A DNA stretch of 64,000 nucleotides from Blastopirellula sp. J2-11. GTDB lineage: Bacteria; Planctomycetota; Planctomycetia; Pirellulales; Pirellulaceae. The DNA is taken from contig NZ_CP097384.1 in assembly GCF_024584705.1 (NCBI RefSeq), positions 868,001 through 932,000 on the forward strand. The letters run 5' to 3'. The position numbers and the translations under genes were made by a program. Below the pieces are notes generated by a model. It had not been told where the DNA came from. It made no database searches and saw only the letters and a program-made list of their open reading frames with translations. Positions 7,781-13,137 of this stretch are shown here, piece after piece. Positions within the stretch are counted from its first letter, which is position 1. Every line of letters begins with the position of its first letter.

Positions 7781-8065
7781 ATGAGTGTCGCCATGGACCT
7801 GCCGTTAAGCGAAAAAACCGAGTCGCTGATTCAAAAGCATCTGGCCAGCGGCAAGTACGACAGTCCGCAGCAGATTGTCGAAGAGGCGTTGGAGCAATTT
7901 GACCAACATGCGGCCGCCCTGGCGGAAGTGAATGCAAAGCTAGAGGTTGGCCTCGCGGATTTGCGTGCTGGGCGCTTTCGTGAGATCCGTACGGAGGAAG
8001 ATGTTGCGTCGCTGAAGAAAGATGTATTTCAAAGGATTAAAGAACGTCATGAGCTAGAGGACTAA
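7781..8065 (+). CDS. ParD/CopG-type antitoxin
   Basis: Small acidic protein of 94 residues (90 if translation starts at the second ATG, 7793). Near the N-terminus it has a ribbon-helix-helix-like stretch (LPLSEKTESLIQKHLASGKY) and then SPQQIVEEALEQF, typical of ParD antitoxins that bind their own operator and neutralise ParE. The C-terminal half is charged and helical, as expected for the toxin-wrapping tail. Its stop codon abuts the ATG of the next gene, so the pair is translationally coupled. The assignment rests on sequence flavour, size and gene order together. Confidence 0.8.
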   Translation: MSVAMDLPLSEKTESLIQKHLASGKYDSPQQIVEEALEQFDQHAAALAEVNAKLEVGLADLRAGRFREIRTEEDVASLKKDVFQRIKERHELED

Positions 8066-8350
8066 ATGTTCTATCAGCTCTCGGCGGCTGCGGAATCCGA
8101 TTTGGATGCAATCGTAAACTATCTTTTTGGCGAAAGTCCGGTTGCCGCCAGCAAGGTATTTGATGATTTGACCCAACGTTTTGAATTGTTGTCAACACAG
8201 CCGTTGCTTGGCGAAGTGCATCCTGGCCCGCGGCATTTTCGGCGAAGTATTGTCGGGAATTACGTCGTCTTTTATGTTCCGTTGAATGCTGGAATTGAAA
8301 TAGCACGTATTCTTCACGGCAATCGCGACATCACGGCACTCTTGCGGTAA
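8066..8350 (+). CDS. ParE/RelE-superfamily toxin
   Basis: 94-residue type II toxin of the ParE/RelE fold. It starts FYQLSAAAESDLDAIVNY, the usual first strand and helix of plasmid-stabilisation ParE proteins, has GEVHPGPRHFRRSIVGNYVVFY in the middle (written here only as landmark residues: Arg-rich strand followed by YVVFY), and ends IEIARILHGNRDI, the family's final strand. ParE members usually poison DNA gyrase, RelE members cleave mRNA; the sequence alone does not decide between them. It begins immediately after the antitoxin stop codon, with zero spacing. Confidence 0.82.
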   Translation: MFYQLSAAAESDLDAIVNYLFGESPVAASKVFDDLTQRFELLSTQPLLGEVHPGPRHFRRSIVGNYVVFYVPLNAGIEIARILHGNRDITALLR

Positions 8351-8352
8351 CC

Positions 8353-8682
8353 ATGACCGACTCTTCTAAAAACAGCGACGCCGAGAACCCCTTCGCTTCG
8401 CCCAATTGCGATGCGCCCGACCGACCGGTTCGCGATTGTCCCGACTGTGCGGCGCCGATGGAGTACGGGATGATCACCTCTTACGCGCCGATCAAATGGC
8501 GCATTCTCGATCGTTCGATGCTGGAACGCCTATTGGCCGGCGGCGATGAGCCGGTGGTCGGTTCGGACTTCGCACTACGACTGGGACCGTTTCGCAGCGA
8601 CAGTTTTCGCTGCCGGATTTGCGGGATGATTATCATCGCGCCCCGGAGTGAACAGCCAAAGAAAGAGTCGAAGAAAGCGTAG
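8353..8682 (+). CDS. Zinc-ribbon-like protein of unknown function
   Basis: 109-residue cytoplasmic protein with two CxxC-type knuckles, CPDC near residue 30 and CRIC near residue 90, which would bind one zinc. The middle region (RILDRSMLERLLAGGDEP) has no recognised catalytic motif. I do not recognise the family with confidence; it resembles small PF20097-like zinc-ribbon proteins common in planctomycetes. The start codon lies 2 bases after the ParE stop, so it is probably co-transcribed with the toxin-antitoxin pair. Whether it takes part in that system is unknown. Confidence 0.6.
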   Translation: MTDSSKNSDAENPFASPNCDAPDRPVRDCPDCAAPMEYGMITSYAPIKWRILDRSMLERLLAGGDEPVVGSDFALRLGPFRSDSFRCRICGMIIIAPRSEQPKKESKKA

Positions 8683-8684
8683 CG

Positions 8685-9329
8685 TTACGTCGGCTTATGG
8701 AATTCGCTGCGGAAGACGTCCAAATCGTTCTTGCGCATGCGACGTTCAAAGTGGGTGCGGTAGTCGAGATCGTGCTCGGCCGGGCGTTCCTCAACCGGCA
8801 GCGGGCCTGCGAGCTGCGTATTGTCATGCAGCAGTTGGACCGTCATGTCAAAGTATTCTTCGACATCGGTCCAAAAGTGCAGGATGCCGCCGGGAATCAG
8901 TACGCGCTCAATCTCTTTCGAGAAGGTTTCGTTCATCACGCGACGGCGATGATGACGCTTCTTCCACCAGGGATCGGGGAAGTAAACATGCACTGCGGCG
9001 GCTGTCGCGTCGGGAAAGACTTCGGGGAAGAGCTTCTGCCCATCGCCGTGAACCATGACCGCGTTGGTGCGACCCTCTTTCGCCAGGCGATAGCCGGCGA
9101 ATTCGGCGTACTTGAAAGCGATTTCGATTCCGAGAAAGTCGCGCTCGGGAGTTCCGCCGGATGCGTTGCGGAGGTAGAGCCCCTTCCCGCAGCCGACTTC
9201 GATTTCTAGCGGAGCGATTCGCCCGAACAGCGCTTCAGGATCCCAGGGACGCGGCACTTGTTCGGCCGTGCGAAAGTTGCGACTGAAGTCGACGCTGGGA
9301 TTAAGTTTCGGAAGCGTTTTGCGGCCCAT
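8685..9329 (-). CDS. trmB: tRNA (guanine-N7-)-methyltransferase
   Basis: SAM-dependent methylation of G46 in the tRNA variable loop, in the cytoplasm. 214 residues, normal for TrmB. The SAM motif is EIEVGCGKGLYL, and the family signature VHVYFPDPWWKKRHHRRR follows. The C-terminus carries THFERRMRKNDLDV, typical of TrmB (T-x-F-E-R). It is the last gene of a minus-strand run bL37-like, fabZ-like, trmB with short gaps (61 and 27 bases). It converges with the zinc-ribbon gene, whose stop lies 2 bases away. Confidence 0.95.
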   Translation of the reverse strand: MGRKTLPKLNPSVDFSRNFRTAEQVPRPWDPEALFGRIAPLEIEVGCGKGLYLRNASGGTPERDFLGIEIAFKYAEFAGYRLAKEGRTNAVMVHGDGQKLFPEVFPDATAAAVHVYFPDPWWKKRHHRRRVMNETFSKEIERVLIPGGILHFWTDVEEYFDMTVQLLHDNTQLAGPLPVEERPAEHDLDYRTHFERRMRKNDLDVFRSEFHKPT

Positions 9330-9356
9330 GATGAACTACGAAAGAGGCGGGGCCGA

Positions 9357-9851
9357 TTACAGATTTTTCGGAAGAGGAATGCCGCGAATCTCTCCCTCGC
9401 AAACCAGGCGTTCGTCAATGAACCCCTGAAAACGGCAGACGATGATTCGACCGGCGCGGCCCTTGGTCTTTTGCAGCACGATCACCAAGCGTTTGCCGGG
9501 TTGTACGATGCCGCGAAATTTGACCTGATCGAGTCCACCGAACCCGAGCTGATAGTCGCCCATCAGGTTGTGGCGCGTGACGTACCACGAGCTGACCTGA
9601 GCGGCCGCTTCGCACATCAAAACGCCGGGCATCAGCGGAAAACCAGGCATATGTCCACGAACCCAGAATTCATCTTCGGCCAGATCTTTGTATCCGACGC
9701 AGATGTCCTTCTCGGTGTCTTCGTAGACGATCGCCGTCAACTGCTCCATTTCGAAGCGTTGTGGGTTCAACTCGCGAATCGCTTCAATATCAGCGATGAC
9801 GTTGTTGCAGTCGATCGTCGCGGGATCGAGGATGTATTCTTCGCGCGGCAC
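9357..9851 (-). CDS. FabZ/FabA-like 3-hydroxyacyl-ACP dehydratase
   Basis: Hot-dog-fold dehydratase of 164 residues. The active-site region HMPGFPLMPGVLMCEAAAQ contains the FabZ catalytic histidine (GHMPGFPLMPG) and the downstream Glu, so it should remove water from 3-hydroxyacyl-ACP in fatty-acid elongation. The start is GTG 9851. It sits apart from the fabD-fabG-acpP-fabF block in this window and may be the main FabZ or a paralogue with another acyl substrate. The N-terminal 40 residues (YILDPATIDCNNVIADIEAI) are longer than in E. coli FabZ. Confidence 0.85.
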   Translation of the reverse strand: MPREEYILDPATIDCNNVIADIEAIRELNPQRFEMEQLTAIVYEDTEKDICVGYKDLAEDEFWVRGHMPGFPLMPGVLMCEAAAQVSSWYVTRHNLMGDYQLGFGGLDQVKFRGIVQPGKRLVIVLQKTKGRAGRIIVCRFQGFIDERLVCEGEIRGIPLPKNL

Positions 9852-9912
9852 GGCGCCACACTCCTCCGCAGGCGGTCAGCGAAACGTGAAAATCCCAACA
9901 AGCGGGACGAGA

Positions 9913-10011
9913 CTAGGTCTTGATCGAGCGACGCTTGGCTTTGCGAGCTTTGGCGCTGGCAGGACGTGCGCCATGATTGGCTTTTTTCAATTTGCGGTGC
10001 GGTTTGGCCAT
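9913..10011 (-). CDS. bL37-like small basic ribosomal protein
   Basis: A 32-residue, very basic open frame read directly from the minus strand. It starts MAKPHRKLKK, continues KANHGARPASAKARK and ends RRSIKT. The KANHGxRP core matches what I recall of the small ribosomal protein bL37 seen in mycobacterial 50S structures. An AGGA Shine-Dalgarno lies about 10 bases upstream of ATG 10011. It is the first gene of a run leading to the dehydratase (61 bp) and trmB, a translation-related neighbour. The role in the large subunit is inferred from similarity recalled from memory, not from a search. Confidence 0.72.
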   Translation of the reverse strand: MAKPHRKLKKANHGARPASAKARKAKRRSIKT

Positions 10012-10126
10012 TTTCTTTATTCCTGGTGCTGCTTAACTTTGCAGGTCGGTGGTTACGAATCCCAAATTTTAGCGTGCAAGACGCTTGCGGGAAAGGACCA
10101 TTGCCTGTCCCCGCTGGCTGGGGGTT

Positions 10127-13012
10127 CTATCTGGGGGAGCGACGGACCGGAATAATGGTCGCTCGGCCTGATTCTTTGTCGCCGTCGTCGGCGGCGGAAT
10201 GCTTCGGCGGAACCTCCTGCTGGCCCCCGAAGGAGGACTCGGCGCTGCGATCTTTGGCAGGGGGCATTTCTTTGTCAAAGTCGCTCAGCAGGCCGGGGCG
10301 AATTCGTTTACGCGTCGCTTCTGGTTTCTGTTTACGATTCGGATCGTCTTTTTTCAAATTCCAGGTGATTGTCGAGAGAAACGCCGGCAGCACGATCAGC
10401 GACGTGAACAAGCAGCAGGTCACGCCGATGGTGAGTACGCGACCCAGACTTTGCAGCCCTTGATGATCGGCCAGCATCAGTGAGCCGAAGCCGATCATAG
10501 TGGTTAGCGACGTGATAAGGACGGCCGCGGCGGTCGACGCCGAGATCCGATATCGCTTGCCGGCCTGGCAGCGGAAGTCGTGCAGCACATGCACGCCGTC
10601 GTCGATGCCGATTCCCAGGATCAACGGCAGCACGATCATGTTAGCCGGGTTCAACGGAATATCCATAAACCCCTGAATGCCGAAGAGCATCGCACCCCCA
10701 AATCCAACCGGAGTCAGCGCCAGCAGCGAATGTCGTAAGCTGCGGAAGTCGAGAATCAGCACGATCAACACCGCGATCAGCGAATAGATCGCCGCGTGGA
10801 CATAGCTCTTTTGCATTTGCCGCGAAGCGTAAAAGGTTTGCAGCGGCTGGCCGGTGACTTGCGAATCGACCGACTGCACTTCGTGTACGAAATCGGCCAG
10901 CGATTCCATATCCCAAATATCGCCGTTGGGATAGATCCGCAGCAAGTATTGATTGTTCTTGCCGACGAACCGGGTCACGAGCGCTTCCGGAAAATCGTCA
11001 ACGTCCGGGGTCTCGGGGTCAGACACCGCGTAGAGCGAATGCATCCGCGTCAGTAACTCGCCGGCGGAGCGTTGTTGCAGCGAACGCATCAGCGCTTCGT
11101 AGTTTGCCTGGGGCATCGTGCGAAGCAGTTCCCGCGCCTGACTAATCCGGCGGCGCGCTTGCAGCGCTGTCGCGTCGTCGCCTGGCAGCAGTTGTTGTGC
11201 TTGGGCCAAGATCTGCGCCAGTTGCGGGGCCGGCGGGATCGGCAGAGCCGGCGGATACTCGGGCAAGTTGGTCAAGCGTGAGCGAATCCGCTCAATCTGC
11301 GCCGATCGTTGCTCGTCATCCGGCGGCAACAACGAGGCGATCTCTTCGACATGATCGACGTTCGCGAGCTTCTCGAACGCCTCTTTCCGCGCGATCAGCT
11401 CTTGGCGACTGCCGGCGATGGACAACGCGAACCAAACGCTGCGATCCGTCTCTTCCAGCAGCTTCTTTTCCCACTCGACGCTCTCGAGTCCTTGCGCTTG
11501 CAAGTTGAGCAGGTTGTGGTCGTAGTAAAGCTTCGAAGCGCCGGTTGAGAGAAAGAGGCACAACGCGAGCGACGCGATCAACGTCGCTCGGGGCGCTTGC
11601 ATCATCGGTGCGATCCAGCCGTCGATCCGCAGCGGATTTGGCAGGAGATAGCGATTGCGATTGCGATCGGCCAGGACAATCATCGCCGGCAACAGCGTAA
11701 AGGCCCCGATCAGGCAGACAATAATGCCGCCGCCGGCGATCACGCCCAACTCGGCGACGCCGGTAAATTCGGTCAGCGCGGCGGTGAAAAAAGCGATCGA
11801 CGTGGTTGCGGCGCCGGTCACGATACCGGGCCCCACGCTGCGCGACGTTTCGATCAGCGCTTCGCCGCTATCGCCGATCCGCTGCCGCAGTTGCAGATAC
11901 TTAGCGACATAGTGGACGCCGAAGTCGATCCCCAGCCCGATCAGGATGACGCCAAACGAAACGCTTAAAATGTTCAGGTGTCCAATCGAGATCGTGACGA
12001 AGCCAAAGCTCCAGGCCAGGCCGACGATCAAGGTGCCGACCGCCAGCAGGGGATGCCGCAAACCGCCGAAGCCGGCGATAAACAGCACCGCGACGCCGAT
12101 CAAGCTGAGCACGCTCGACAGGATCATGTCCTTTTGACTGCCCTCCATCTCGTCATTTTCCATGACGGGCAAACCGGTCAGGCCAATTTGCACTTCGGGA
12201 TGGCCCGCTTGCACGTTGCGGATGATTCCGCGTAGGCGACGGATCGCTTCGCCTCCTTGCGAGAAGCTTGATTCATTTTTGACCAGGCGCAACAGGACAA
12301 AGCCCATCCGTCCTTCGTTGGCGGTGAAATACTCCGAGTCAAGTTGGCTCATCACCGAGAGCGACTCGTGCGGCTCATTCCAAATCGACGTGTTCGATCC
12401 ATCTTCGCGCAACGCATGCAGCAGGCCGTCGGCCAGACGATTCATCTCCGCGGCGGCTGCTCGTTTCTGTTGGGGCGAATCGATCAGCAGTCGTTGATTA
12501 GCGCCCCAGAGAAGTCGATCAAAAGAGATCGCTTCCCATTGTCCGCTCAGCACCGGCTGCAGCGCCGCGAGTTCACCTTCCATTTCTGCGAGTTCATCCG
12601 GCGGCACATAGTGCAGGCCTTTGGCGCGAACATTGGCCAGACCTCGTTCGTGCAGCACGGCGTAGAACGATTCGCGATTCGCCGAGAGCCGACTGTAGAG
12701 CGCTTCCAACACCGGAGAGACGTTCTCTTTGGCGTTCCCTTCGACGACGACCACGACGTCGTCATCGGCGCCAAACTGCTCGAGATATTCGAGCCAGAGT
12801 TGGTTGTAGTTGCTGTTGGGATTGATCAGGTCGAGTCGGCTTGTGCGGAATCCCAACGACTTGGTGGCGCCGATGACCGAAGCGACCGCGACCAGCAGGC
12901 CTAACACGATCACAGTGACCGGATTACGAACGACGACGCGCGTCAGCTCGGCGAGCGGCATCGCTAGCATCGAGCGGTCAGCAGCGGACTCGTCAGGCGA
13001 CCCGGGCGACAT
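10127..13012 (-). CDS. MMPL/RND-family exporter (HpnN-like)
   Basis: Inner-membrane proton-driven exporter of the RND superfamily MMPL branch, 961 residues. There is an N-terminal transmembrane helix (VVVRNPVTVIVLGLLVAVAS), a large periplasmic domain to about residue 270, and a helix bundle with GLGIDFGVHYVAKY. A second periplasmic domain follows, then a second bundle with LGIGIDDGVHVLHDF. The two G-I-D-x-G-V-H motifs are the conserved MMPL proton-relay region. The C-terminal 60 residues are charged and cytoplasmic. The closest functional analogy is HpnN, which moves hopanoids, but the lipid substrate is not shown. Confidence 0.9.
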   Translation of the reverse strand: MSPGSPDESAADRSMLAMPLAELTRVVVRNPVTVIVLGLLVAVASVIGATKSLGFRTSRLDLINPNSNYNQLWLEYLEQFGADDDVVVVVEGNAKENVSPVLEALYSRLSANRESFYAVLHERGLANVRAKGLHYVPPDELAEMEGELAALQPVLSGQWEAISFDRLLWGANQRLLIDSPQQKRAAAAEMNRLADGLLHALREDGSNTSIWNEPHESLSVMSQLDSEYFTANEGRMGFVLLRLVKNESSFSQGGEAIRRLRGIIRNVQAGHPEVQIGLTGLPVMENDEMEGSQKDMILSSVLSLIGVAVLFIAGFGGLRHPLLAVGTLIVGLAWSFGFVTISIGHLNILSVSFGVILIGLGIDFGVHYVAKYLQLRQRIGDSGEALIETSRSVGPGIVTGAATTSIAFFTAALTEFTGVAELGVIAGGGIIVCLIGAFTLLPAMIVLADRNRNRYLLPNPLRIDGWIAPMMQAPRATLIASLALCLFLSTGASKLYYDHNLLNLQAQGLESVEWEKKLLEETDRSVWFALSIAGSRQELIARKEAFEKLANVDHVEEIASLLPPDDEQRSAQIERIRSRLTNLPEYPPALPIPPAPQLAQILAQAQQLLPGDDATALQARRRISQARELLRTMPQANYEALMRSLQQRSAGELLTRMHSLYAVSDPETPDVDDFPEALVTRFVGKNNQYLLRIYPNGDIWDMESLADFVHEVQSVDSQVTGQPLQTFYASRQMQKSYVHAAIYSLIAVLIVLILDFRSLRHSLLALTPVGFGGAMLFGIQGFMDIPLNPANMIVLPLILGIGIDDGVHVLHDFRCQAGKRYRISASTAAAVLITSLTTMIGFGSLMLADHQGLQSLGRVLTIGVTCCLFTSLIVLPAFLSTITWNLKKDDPNRKQKPEATRKRIRPGLLSDFDKEMPPAKDRSAESSFGGQQEVPPKHSAADDGDKESGRATIIPVRRSPR

Positions 13013-13137
13013 GAACGAACTTTCAGGGCTACGTAGAGCAGACAGAGAATCAGCGCTAACGACGAGCGCCAGCGGGGGATTCTAGTGAGACCGTGACGTA
13101 GGGGAAAGAGCGAACTGCCGCAGATGCTAGCGTCGGA

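What the first reader, a model, noticed from the sequence alone, without database searches (positions are those of the whole stretch)
9913..10011. A 32-residue bL37-like ribosomal protein gene
A clear, well-positioned ORF on the minus strand with its own Shine-Dalgarno encodes a 32-residue basic protein whose KANHGxRP core resembles actinobacterial bL37 as I recall it. If right, planctomycete ribosomes carry a bL37 homologue, with a longer C-terminal basic tail here. Genes this small are easily lost in annotation. It leads a run with a FabZ-like gene and trmB.
Basis: partly seen in the sequence, partly recalled or inferred. Interest (0 to 1): 0.75.

Follow-up and report, generated by a model that had tools for sequence, protein, structure and literature searches.

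The report
Tiny planctomycete ribosomal protein bL37
This 32-residue gene is real and almost certainly encodes the small ribosomal protein bL37, which an NCBI protein-family library already names in planctomycetes; the less expected part is that its best match among solved structures is a protein of a ciliate's mitochondrial ribosome.

Summary
The ORF at 9913-10011 (-) is a real, conserved gene. NCBIfam already has a model for its protein, NF047429 ribo_Plancto_bL37 (68.3 bits, cut-off 40). So the claim that planctomycetes carry a bL37 homologue is right, but not new to that library. The model is over its cut-off in 57 of 60 genomes of the order (own included) and 49 of 294 of the phylum. The 20 weaker phylum hits that I read all keep ANHGxRP and an ATG. 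pN/pS is 0.235 over 30 sequences. Papers seen here, in passages, call bL37 actinobacterial or mycobacterial only.

(1) A planctomycete-only profile hits Tetrahymena mitoribosomal mL102 (E 2.5e-7) far better than any actinobacterial bL37 (best 0.0026), and across the tail too. I found no statement of this link in the held papers. (2) uL30 was not found in 24 of 24 planctomycetes, and six of six rpsE-rplO gaps are too short for it. This fits poorly with the published idea that bL37 split from a longer uL30. Presence in the ribosome is inferred, not shown.

The parts
9913..10011 (-). bL37 gene, 32 codons plus stop
   Evidence: NF047429 68.3 bits, cut-off 40
10021..10024 (-). Shine-Dalgarno-like AGGA, nine bases before the ATG
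   Evidence: read; SD-like tetramers at -20 to -4 in 42 of 76 homologous loci, background 0.115
9961..9984 (-). codons 10-17, KANHGARP core shared with actinobacterial bL37 (KANHGKRP) and ciliate mL102 (KANHGARP)
9916..9960 (-). codons 18-32, basic C-terminal tail absent from most of actinobacterial bL37; helix 20-30 predicted
   Evidence: mean pLDDT 74.8
9357..9851 (-). FabZ-like gene next downstream, 61 bases after the bL37 stop; context only
   Evidence: Pfam FabA PF07977 2.9e-22; downstream on the same strand in 34 of 36 loci of the order
8685..9329 (-). trmB (tRNA methyltransferase family); context only
   Evidence: Pfam PF02390 2.6e-36
10127..13012 (-). MMPL-family transporter gene next upstream, 115 bases before the bL37 ATG; context only
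   Evidence: Pfam PF03176 1.7e-37

Best explanation
The gene encodes the planctomycete form of the large-subunit ribosomal protein bL37. By analogy with the solved actinobacterial protein, its KANHGxRP core should sit in the rRNA pocket formed by 23S helices H39-H42, H72 and H89 below the 5S rRNA, near the peptidyl transferase centre. There it would neutralise phosphates and brace H89 against the 5S region. [quoted passage not shown] Shown here: the gene, its conservation, the sequence homology. Inferred: incorporation into the ribosome, the position, the path of the tail and the stabilising role.
For: NCBIfam NF047429 at E 5.4e-19. Match over the curated cut-off in 57 of 60 genomes of the order, own included. 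Twenty weaker phylum hits read: 20 of 20 have an ATG, 29-34 codons and ANHGxRP. Purifying selection at the protein level. Homology to solved ribosomal chains with a planctomycete-only profile: mL102 E 2.5e-7, bL37 of entry 7kgb E 0.0026. Pocket from passages of PMC5876184, PMC10085706 and PMC10618245; mL102 position from a passage of PMC7326499, the paper of entry 6Z1P.
Against: No structure, mass spectrum or ribosome profile of a planctomycete ribosome was seen. The gene lies outside the ribosomal operons, next to a FabZ-like gene. The actinobacterial model NF047428 reaches only 17.2 bits against its cut-off of 30, and its search of the window's own genome at E up to 10 listed two other places and not this gene. 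The single window sequence finds mL102 but no bL37 chain in the PDB at E up to 10. The overlap with actinobacterial bL37 is about 14 residues. Nine Planctomycetia genomes rechecked show no match better than E 0.131, so it seems dispensable in some lineages.
Confidence: 0.9

Rival explanations
1. A small basic nucleic-acid-binding or antimicrobial-type peptide that works outside the ribosome and resembles bL37 only in a short motif.
For: It is very basic, the C-terminal half differs from actinobacterial bL37, and C. acnes bL37 itself showed growth-inhibiting activity in a disk test (PMC10085706, passages).
Against: The conserved core is the part shared with two solved ribosomal proteins; length and start are nearly fixed over the phylum in the sequences read; by eye there is no hydrophobic stretch such as an export signal would need (not tested with a program).
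Confidence: 0.06
2. Spurious ORF, with conservation due to a regulatory element or an antisense gene.
For: One antisense frame is free of stops in 27 of 30 sequences.
Against: Changes are mostly synonymous in the sense frame (pN/pS 0.235); the gene persists in other contexts outside the order; no Rfam match in 8000-13100.
Confidence: 0.02
3. A question apart from the first: the shared KANHGxRP motif arose convergently in planctomycetes, actinobacteria and ciliate mitochondria because it fits the same rRNA pocket, so the proteins work alike but are not related.
For: The overlap is short. Other peptides are reported to fill the same cleft, Coxiella CLaSP and the Borrelia uL30 extension, and the CLaSP paper suggests convergence. 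The two matches at E 0.01 in 299 Pseudomonadota do not look like copies, so no bridge through the proteobacteria was seen.
Against: Nine identical residues in a row and similarity over 28 residues in mL102 are more than convergence would usually give; the bL37 match is likewise a run of seven or eight near-identical residues.
Confidence: 0.2

Closest known systems
NCBIfam NF047429 ribo_Plancto_bL37 (50S ribosomal protein bL37, equivalog)
   Same: Full-length match, positions 1-32 of 32, 68.3 bits against a cut-off of 40.
   Different: No difference seen; the window protein is an ordinary member.
Actinobacterial bL37 (PDB 5o60, 7kgb, 8crx; NCBIfam NF047428)
   Same: Small basic protein, KANHGxRP core, starts MAK or MSK in most sequences read.
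   Different: The actinobacterial form has five more residues before the core and stops two to six residues after RP in the sequences read; the planctomycete form has about 15 after RP. Below the NF047428 cut-off (17.2 of 30 bits).
Tetrahymena mitoribosomal protein mL102 (PDB 6z1p chain AQ, 109 residues)
   Same: KKANHGARP identical over nine residues, and similarity across the tail, residues 61-88.
   Different: mL102 has a long N-terminal part and about 20 further C-terminal residues. The plant mitoribosomal protein called mL102 is a PPR protein, rPPR5.
Borrelia uL30 N-terminal extension and Coxiella CLaSP
   Same: Reported to occupy the same rRNA cleft.
   Different: The CLaSP paper reports no substantial sequence identity with bL37. 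I compared neither sequence myself.

Membership tests
bL37, planctomycete equivalog NF047429 | Score over the curated cut-off of 40 bits, full length | tested here: met
   68.3 bits, 1-32 of 32
bL37, planctomycete equivalog NF047429 | Conserved across the lineage as a free-standing small gene | tested here: met
   57 of 60 in the order; 20 of 20 weak phylum hits read have ATG and stop at 29-34 codons; 21 further weak hits were not read
bL37, actinobacterial form NF047428 | Score over the curated cut-off of 30 bits | tested here: not met
   17.2 bits, residues 6-17; not listed in the genome search
bL37, actinobacterial form NF047428 | KANHGxRP core | tested here: met
bL37, actinobacterial form NF047428 | About 13-residue N-terminal helix | tested here: inconclusive
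   Five residues shorter before the core; AlphaFold2 gives no helix before residue 20, at modest confidence and without rRNA
bL37 in general | Bound in the H39-H42, H72, H89 and 5S pocket of the 50S subunit | not testable with these tools
   No planctomycete ribosome structure came up in the searches; only the sequence inference
Mitochondrial mL102 of ciliates as a homologue | Significant match to a planctomycete-only profile | tested here: met
   E 2.5e-7 among 177635 distinct PDB sequences, 28 aligned residues
Mitochondrial mL102 of ciliates as a homologue | Same position in the large subunit | not tested
   The paper's wording (between CP and L7/L12 stalk, C-terminus to the A-site acceptor stem) is compatible; coordinates were not compared, and that ribosome lacks 5S rRNA

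The most novel reading that the evidence does not exclude
bL37 is an old large-subunit protein kept by planctomycetes, some actinobacteria and, as mL102, by ciliate mitochondrial ribosomes. The planctomycete and mitochondrial forms share a C-terminal tail that reaches from the H89/5S pocket towards the A-site tRNA. bL37 did not arise by splitting uL30, since planctomycetes have it without any uL30.
Probability: 0.4. Interest if true: 0.6.

Novelty: already known. Interest (0 to 1): 0.4.

Why it matters
The papers seen here still call bL37 actinobacterial or mycobacterial only, while genomes show it in most sampled Planctomycetia and more thinly in the rest of the phylum. The match to mL102 gives a ciliate mitoribosomal protein a bacterial relative. 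The failure to find uL30 where bL37 is kept bears on a published idea of how bL37 arose. One planctomycete ribosome structure would test all three.

Tried and rejected
Rejected: chance ORF. Rejected: Pseudomonadota homologues. The two matches in 299 genomes at E 0.01, a number that chance alone would give, have no ATG in frame. One (L109) has an in-frame stop. The other (L110, E 0.0085) could start at a GTG and read ANHGNRP, but lies across a 407-codon open frame on the other strand; I call it chance without proof. Rejected: a second copy in the window's genome; the two weak NF047428 matches (E 0.05 and 1.2) hold no ANHG or NHGxRP. Rejected as chance: 14 of the 28 stretches of the collection scan with an AT-biased KANHGxRP pattern. 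Of these, 11 have no ATG in frame before the motif, one (L082) lies in a long frame, and two (L089, L096) are ORFs of 23-24 codons with an ATG just before the motif but without the basic flanks. The other 14 are nine planctomycete and five actinobacterial bL37 genes. That pattern fixes AT-rich wobble bases, so GC-rich phyla are poorly covered by it. Of nine single genomes searched with A2, two matched at E 0.01: an actinobacterium with a true bL37, and an archaeon whose match (E 0.0037) is the chance stretch that brought it in.

Led nowhere: comparing 5S rRNA between genomes with and without bL37. Only 14 of 21 genomes gave a 5S, three of those rows came out empty in my alignment because their loci were cut short, and I saw no consistent difference. 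No promoter was found. Pfam has no matching family. AlphaFold2 on the peptide without rRNA gives one C-terminal helix at modest confidence. No fold search was run. Besides mL102, the single window sequence matched a neural Wiskott-Aldrich protein chain at E 0.038, and A1 a chloroplast FtsHi chain at 1.8; I take these as chance.

Limits: in the larger genome searches only the best 26 or 108 first-look candidates per genome were scored, so misses are upper bounds on absence. Of 14 outside-class genomes without a match, rechecked with A4, three matched at E 0.1: L170 (0.0019) is a plausible diverged copy with a changed NHG; L171 has an in-frame stop and no NHG; L172 reads as chance. Verrucomicrobiota and Chlamydiota were not reached. 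Bacteroidota, Bacillota, Spirochaetota and archaea were not searched as groups, only single genomes of some.

Full report
The minus-strand ORF at 9913-10011 starts with ATG, has an AGGA nine bases upstream and encodes MAKPHRKLKKANHGARPASAKARKAKRRSIKT. It stands 115 bases after an MMPL transporter gene and 61 bases before a FabZ-like gene, and trmB follows, all on one strand.

It is a conserved gene. NCBIfam NF047429, ribo_Plancto_bL37, matches over its whole length at 68.3 bits against a curated cut-off of 40. The model is over its cut-off in 57 of 60 genomes of the same order, own included. In a sample of 294 genomes of the phylum, 86 match at E 0.01 and 49 are over the cut-off. By my count of the rows shown, 46 of 52 same-class genomes match; the other 40 matches lie outside the class, among the remaining 242 if the 188 unlisted genomes are all outside it, as the sorting of the table suggests.

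Of the weaker hits I fetched 20, with E from 4.8e-10 to 6.9e-6: two from the class and 18 of the 40 outside it. Four hits in the same range and 17 weaker ones, two of which have an in-frame TGA, were not read. All 20 have an ATG, 29-34 codons and the ANHGxRP core. Two genomes of one genus have AHHG instead (L043, L049). In 30 sequences of the order pN is 0.174 and pS 0.740, and the closest relative (L003) differs by two silent changes only.

It is missing in places. Nine Planctomycetia genomes without a match were searched again with a broader alignment (A2) and more candidates: eight gave matches at E up to 1, none better than 0.131, and one gave nothing. In seven of the nine only 150 candidates were scored. 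The five sampled genomes of two families (f22, f23) are all in this group. I did not read those weak matches one by one.

The neighbourhood travels with the gene only within the order. A match to the FabZ-like gene lies within 455 bases downstream on the same strand in 34 of 36 loci of the order, and trmB within the 1.5 kb held in 17 of 36. In 22 loci of the same class but outside the order, and in 18 outside the class, neither is found. In the nine loci of the collection scan, FabZ is found in 2 and trmB in 4 (counted by me from its table). So the FabZ and trmB link is no evidence for function.

Relation to known ribosomal proteins. The M. smegmatis bL37 chain shares KANHGxRP, and the hhalign comparison gives probability 94.4 over 14 columns. 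With a profile of 34 planctomycete sequences only (A4), the best PDB match is mL102, E 2.5e-7 over 28 residues; then bL37 of 7kgb at 0.0026, further bL37 chains or peptides at 0.02 (7sfr), 0.1 (5o60) and 0.57 (6dzi) and 8crx at 1.7; a phospholipase A2 at 0.9 is taken as chance. The smaller profile A1 gave mL102 at 8.7e-5 and 7kgb at 0.022. The single window sequence gave mL102 at 0.017 and no bL37. Entry 6Z1P is the Tetrahymena mitoribosome, 8CRX is C. acnes and 5O61, which shares the chain of 5o60, M. smegmatis; that 7kgb is M. tuberculosis is recalled.

Spread. In Actinomycetota 30 of 149 genomes match NF047428 at E 0.01 and 21 are over its cut-off. In Pseudomonadota 2 of 299 match A2 and neither looks like a copy on reading.

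What it does. In M. smegmatis bL37 lies deep in a pocket of H39, H40, the H41/H42 joint, H72 and H89 and touches the buried side of H89 (PMC5876184, passages). In C. acnes it also contacts the 5S rRNA tip (PMC10085706, passages). [quoted passage not shown] I infer that the planctomycete core sits in the same pocket and that the tail, predicted helical at residues 20-30, leaves the pocket in a direction that the actinobacterial protein does not take. None of this is shown for a planctomycete ribosome.

What is in print. PMC5876184 says bL37 exists only in high-G+C actinobacterial species. [quoted passage not shown] I searched for bL37 with ribosom (18 papers), bL37 anywhere in a word (504 papers, 40 listed), mL102 with mitoribosom (3 papers), planctomycete ribosome structures and rpmD with planctomycetes. 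I saw no paper that joins bL37 with planctomycetes or with mL102. I opened nine papers, passages only. The library lacks most subscription journals, and the NCBIfam entry shows that a curator had made the planctomycete link.

uL30. The rpmD model TIGR01308 finds nothing at E 0.01 in 24 of 24 planctomycetes, with and without bL37, while it rings in 12 of 14 control genomes, 9 over the cut-off. In six of six genomes whose rpsE region I fetched, the rplO motif GRGxGSG begins 50 to 59 bases after the rpsE stop in five and 131 in one, which leaves no room for rpmD between them. So bL37 is kept where uL30 is not found. That argues against, but does not exclude, an origin of bL37 by splitting uL30, since uL30 may have been lost later. 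That planctomycetes lack uL30 may well be in print; one search did not settle it.

Verdict: a correct reading of an ordinary member of a family that is already named, with an unexpected mitochondrial relative as the part worth following.

Noticed in passing
window 7781-8065 and 8066-8350 (+): Two abutting small genes; the second is a ParE-type toxin of a toxin-antitoxin pair (Pfam PF05016, 2.3e-15) and the first, without a Pfam match, sits where the antitoxin would be.
   Followed up: no
L141-L146, rpsE regions of six planctomycetes: uL30 (rpmD) was not found in 24 of 24 planctomycete genomes, and there is no room for it between rpsE and rplO in six of six.
   Followed up: partly
L170, minus strand: A diverged bL37-like small ORF, MGRNSRLVKKANGRTRPCNS..., in which the NHG of the core is changed.
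   Followed up: no
L043 and L049: Two genomes of one genus carry AHHG in place of ANHG in the otherwise standard protein.
   Followed up: no
L119, L121, L123, L124: Some actinobacterial bL37 proteins run a few basic residues past RPNA (for example ...KRPNAGRKG), like a shorter version of the planctomycete tail.
   Followed up: no
PDB 6z1p chain AQ: The name mL102 is used both for this ciliate protein and for a plant PPR protein.
   Followed up: partly
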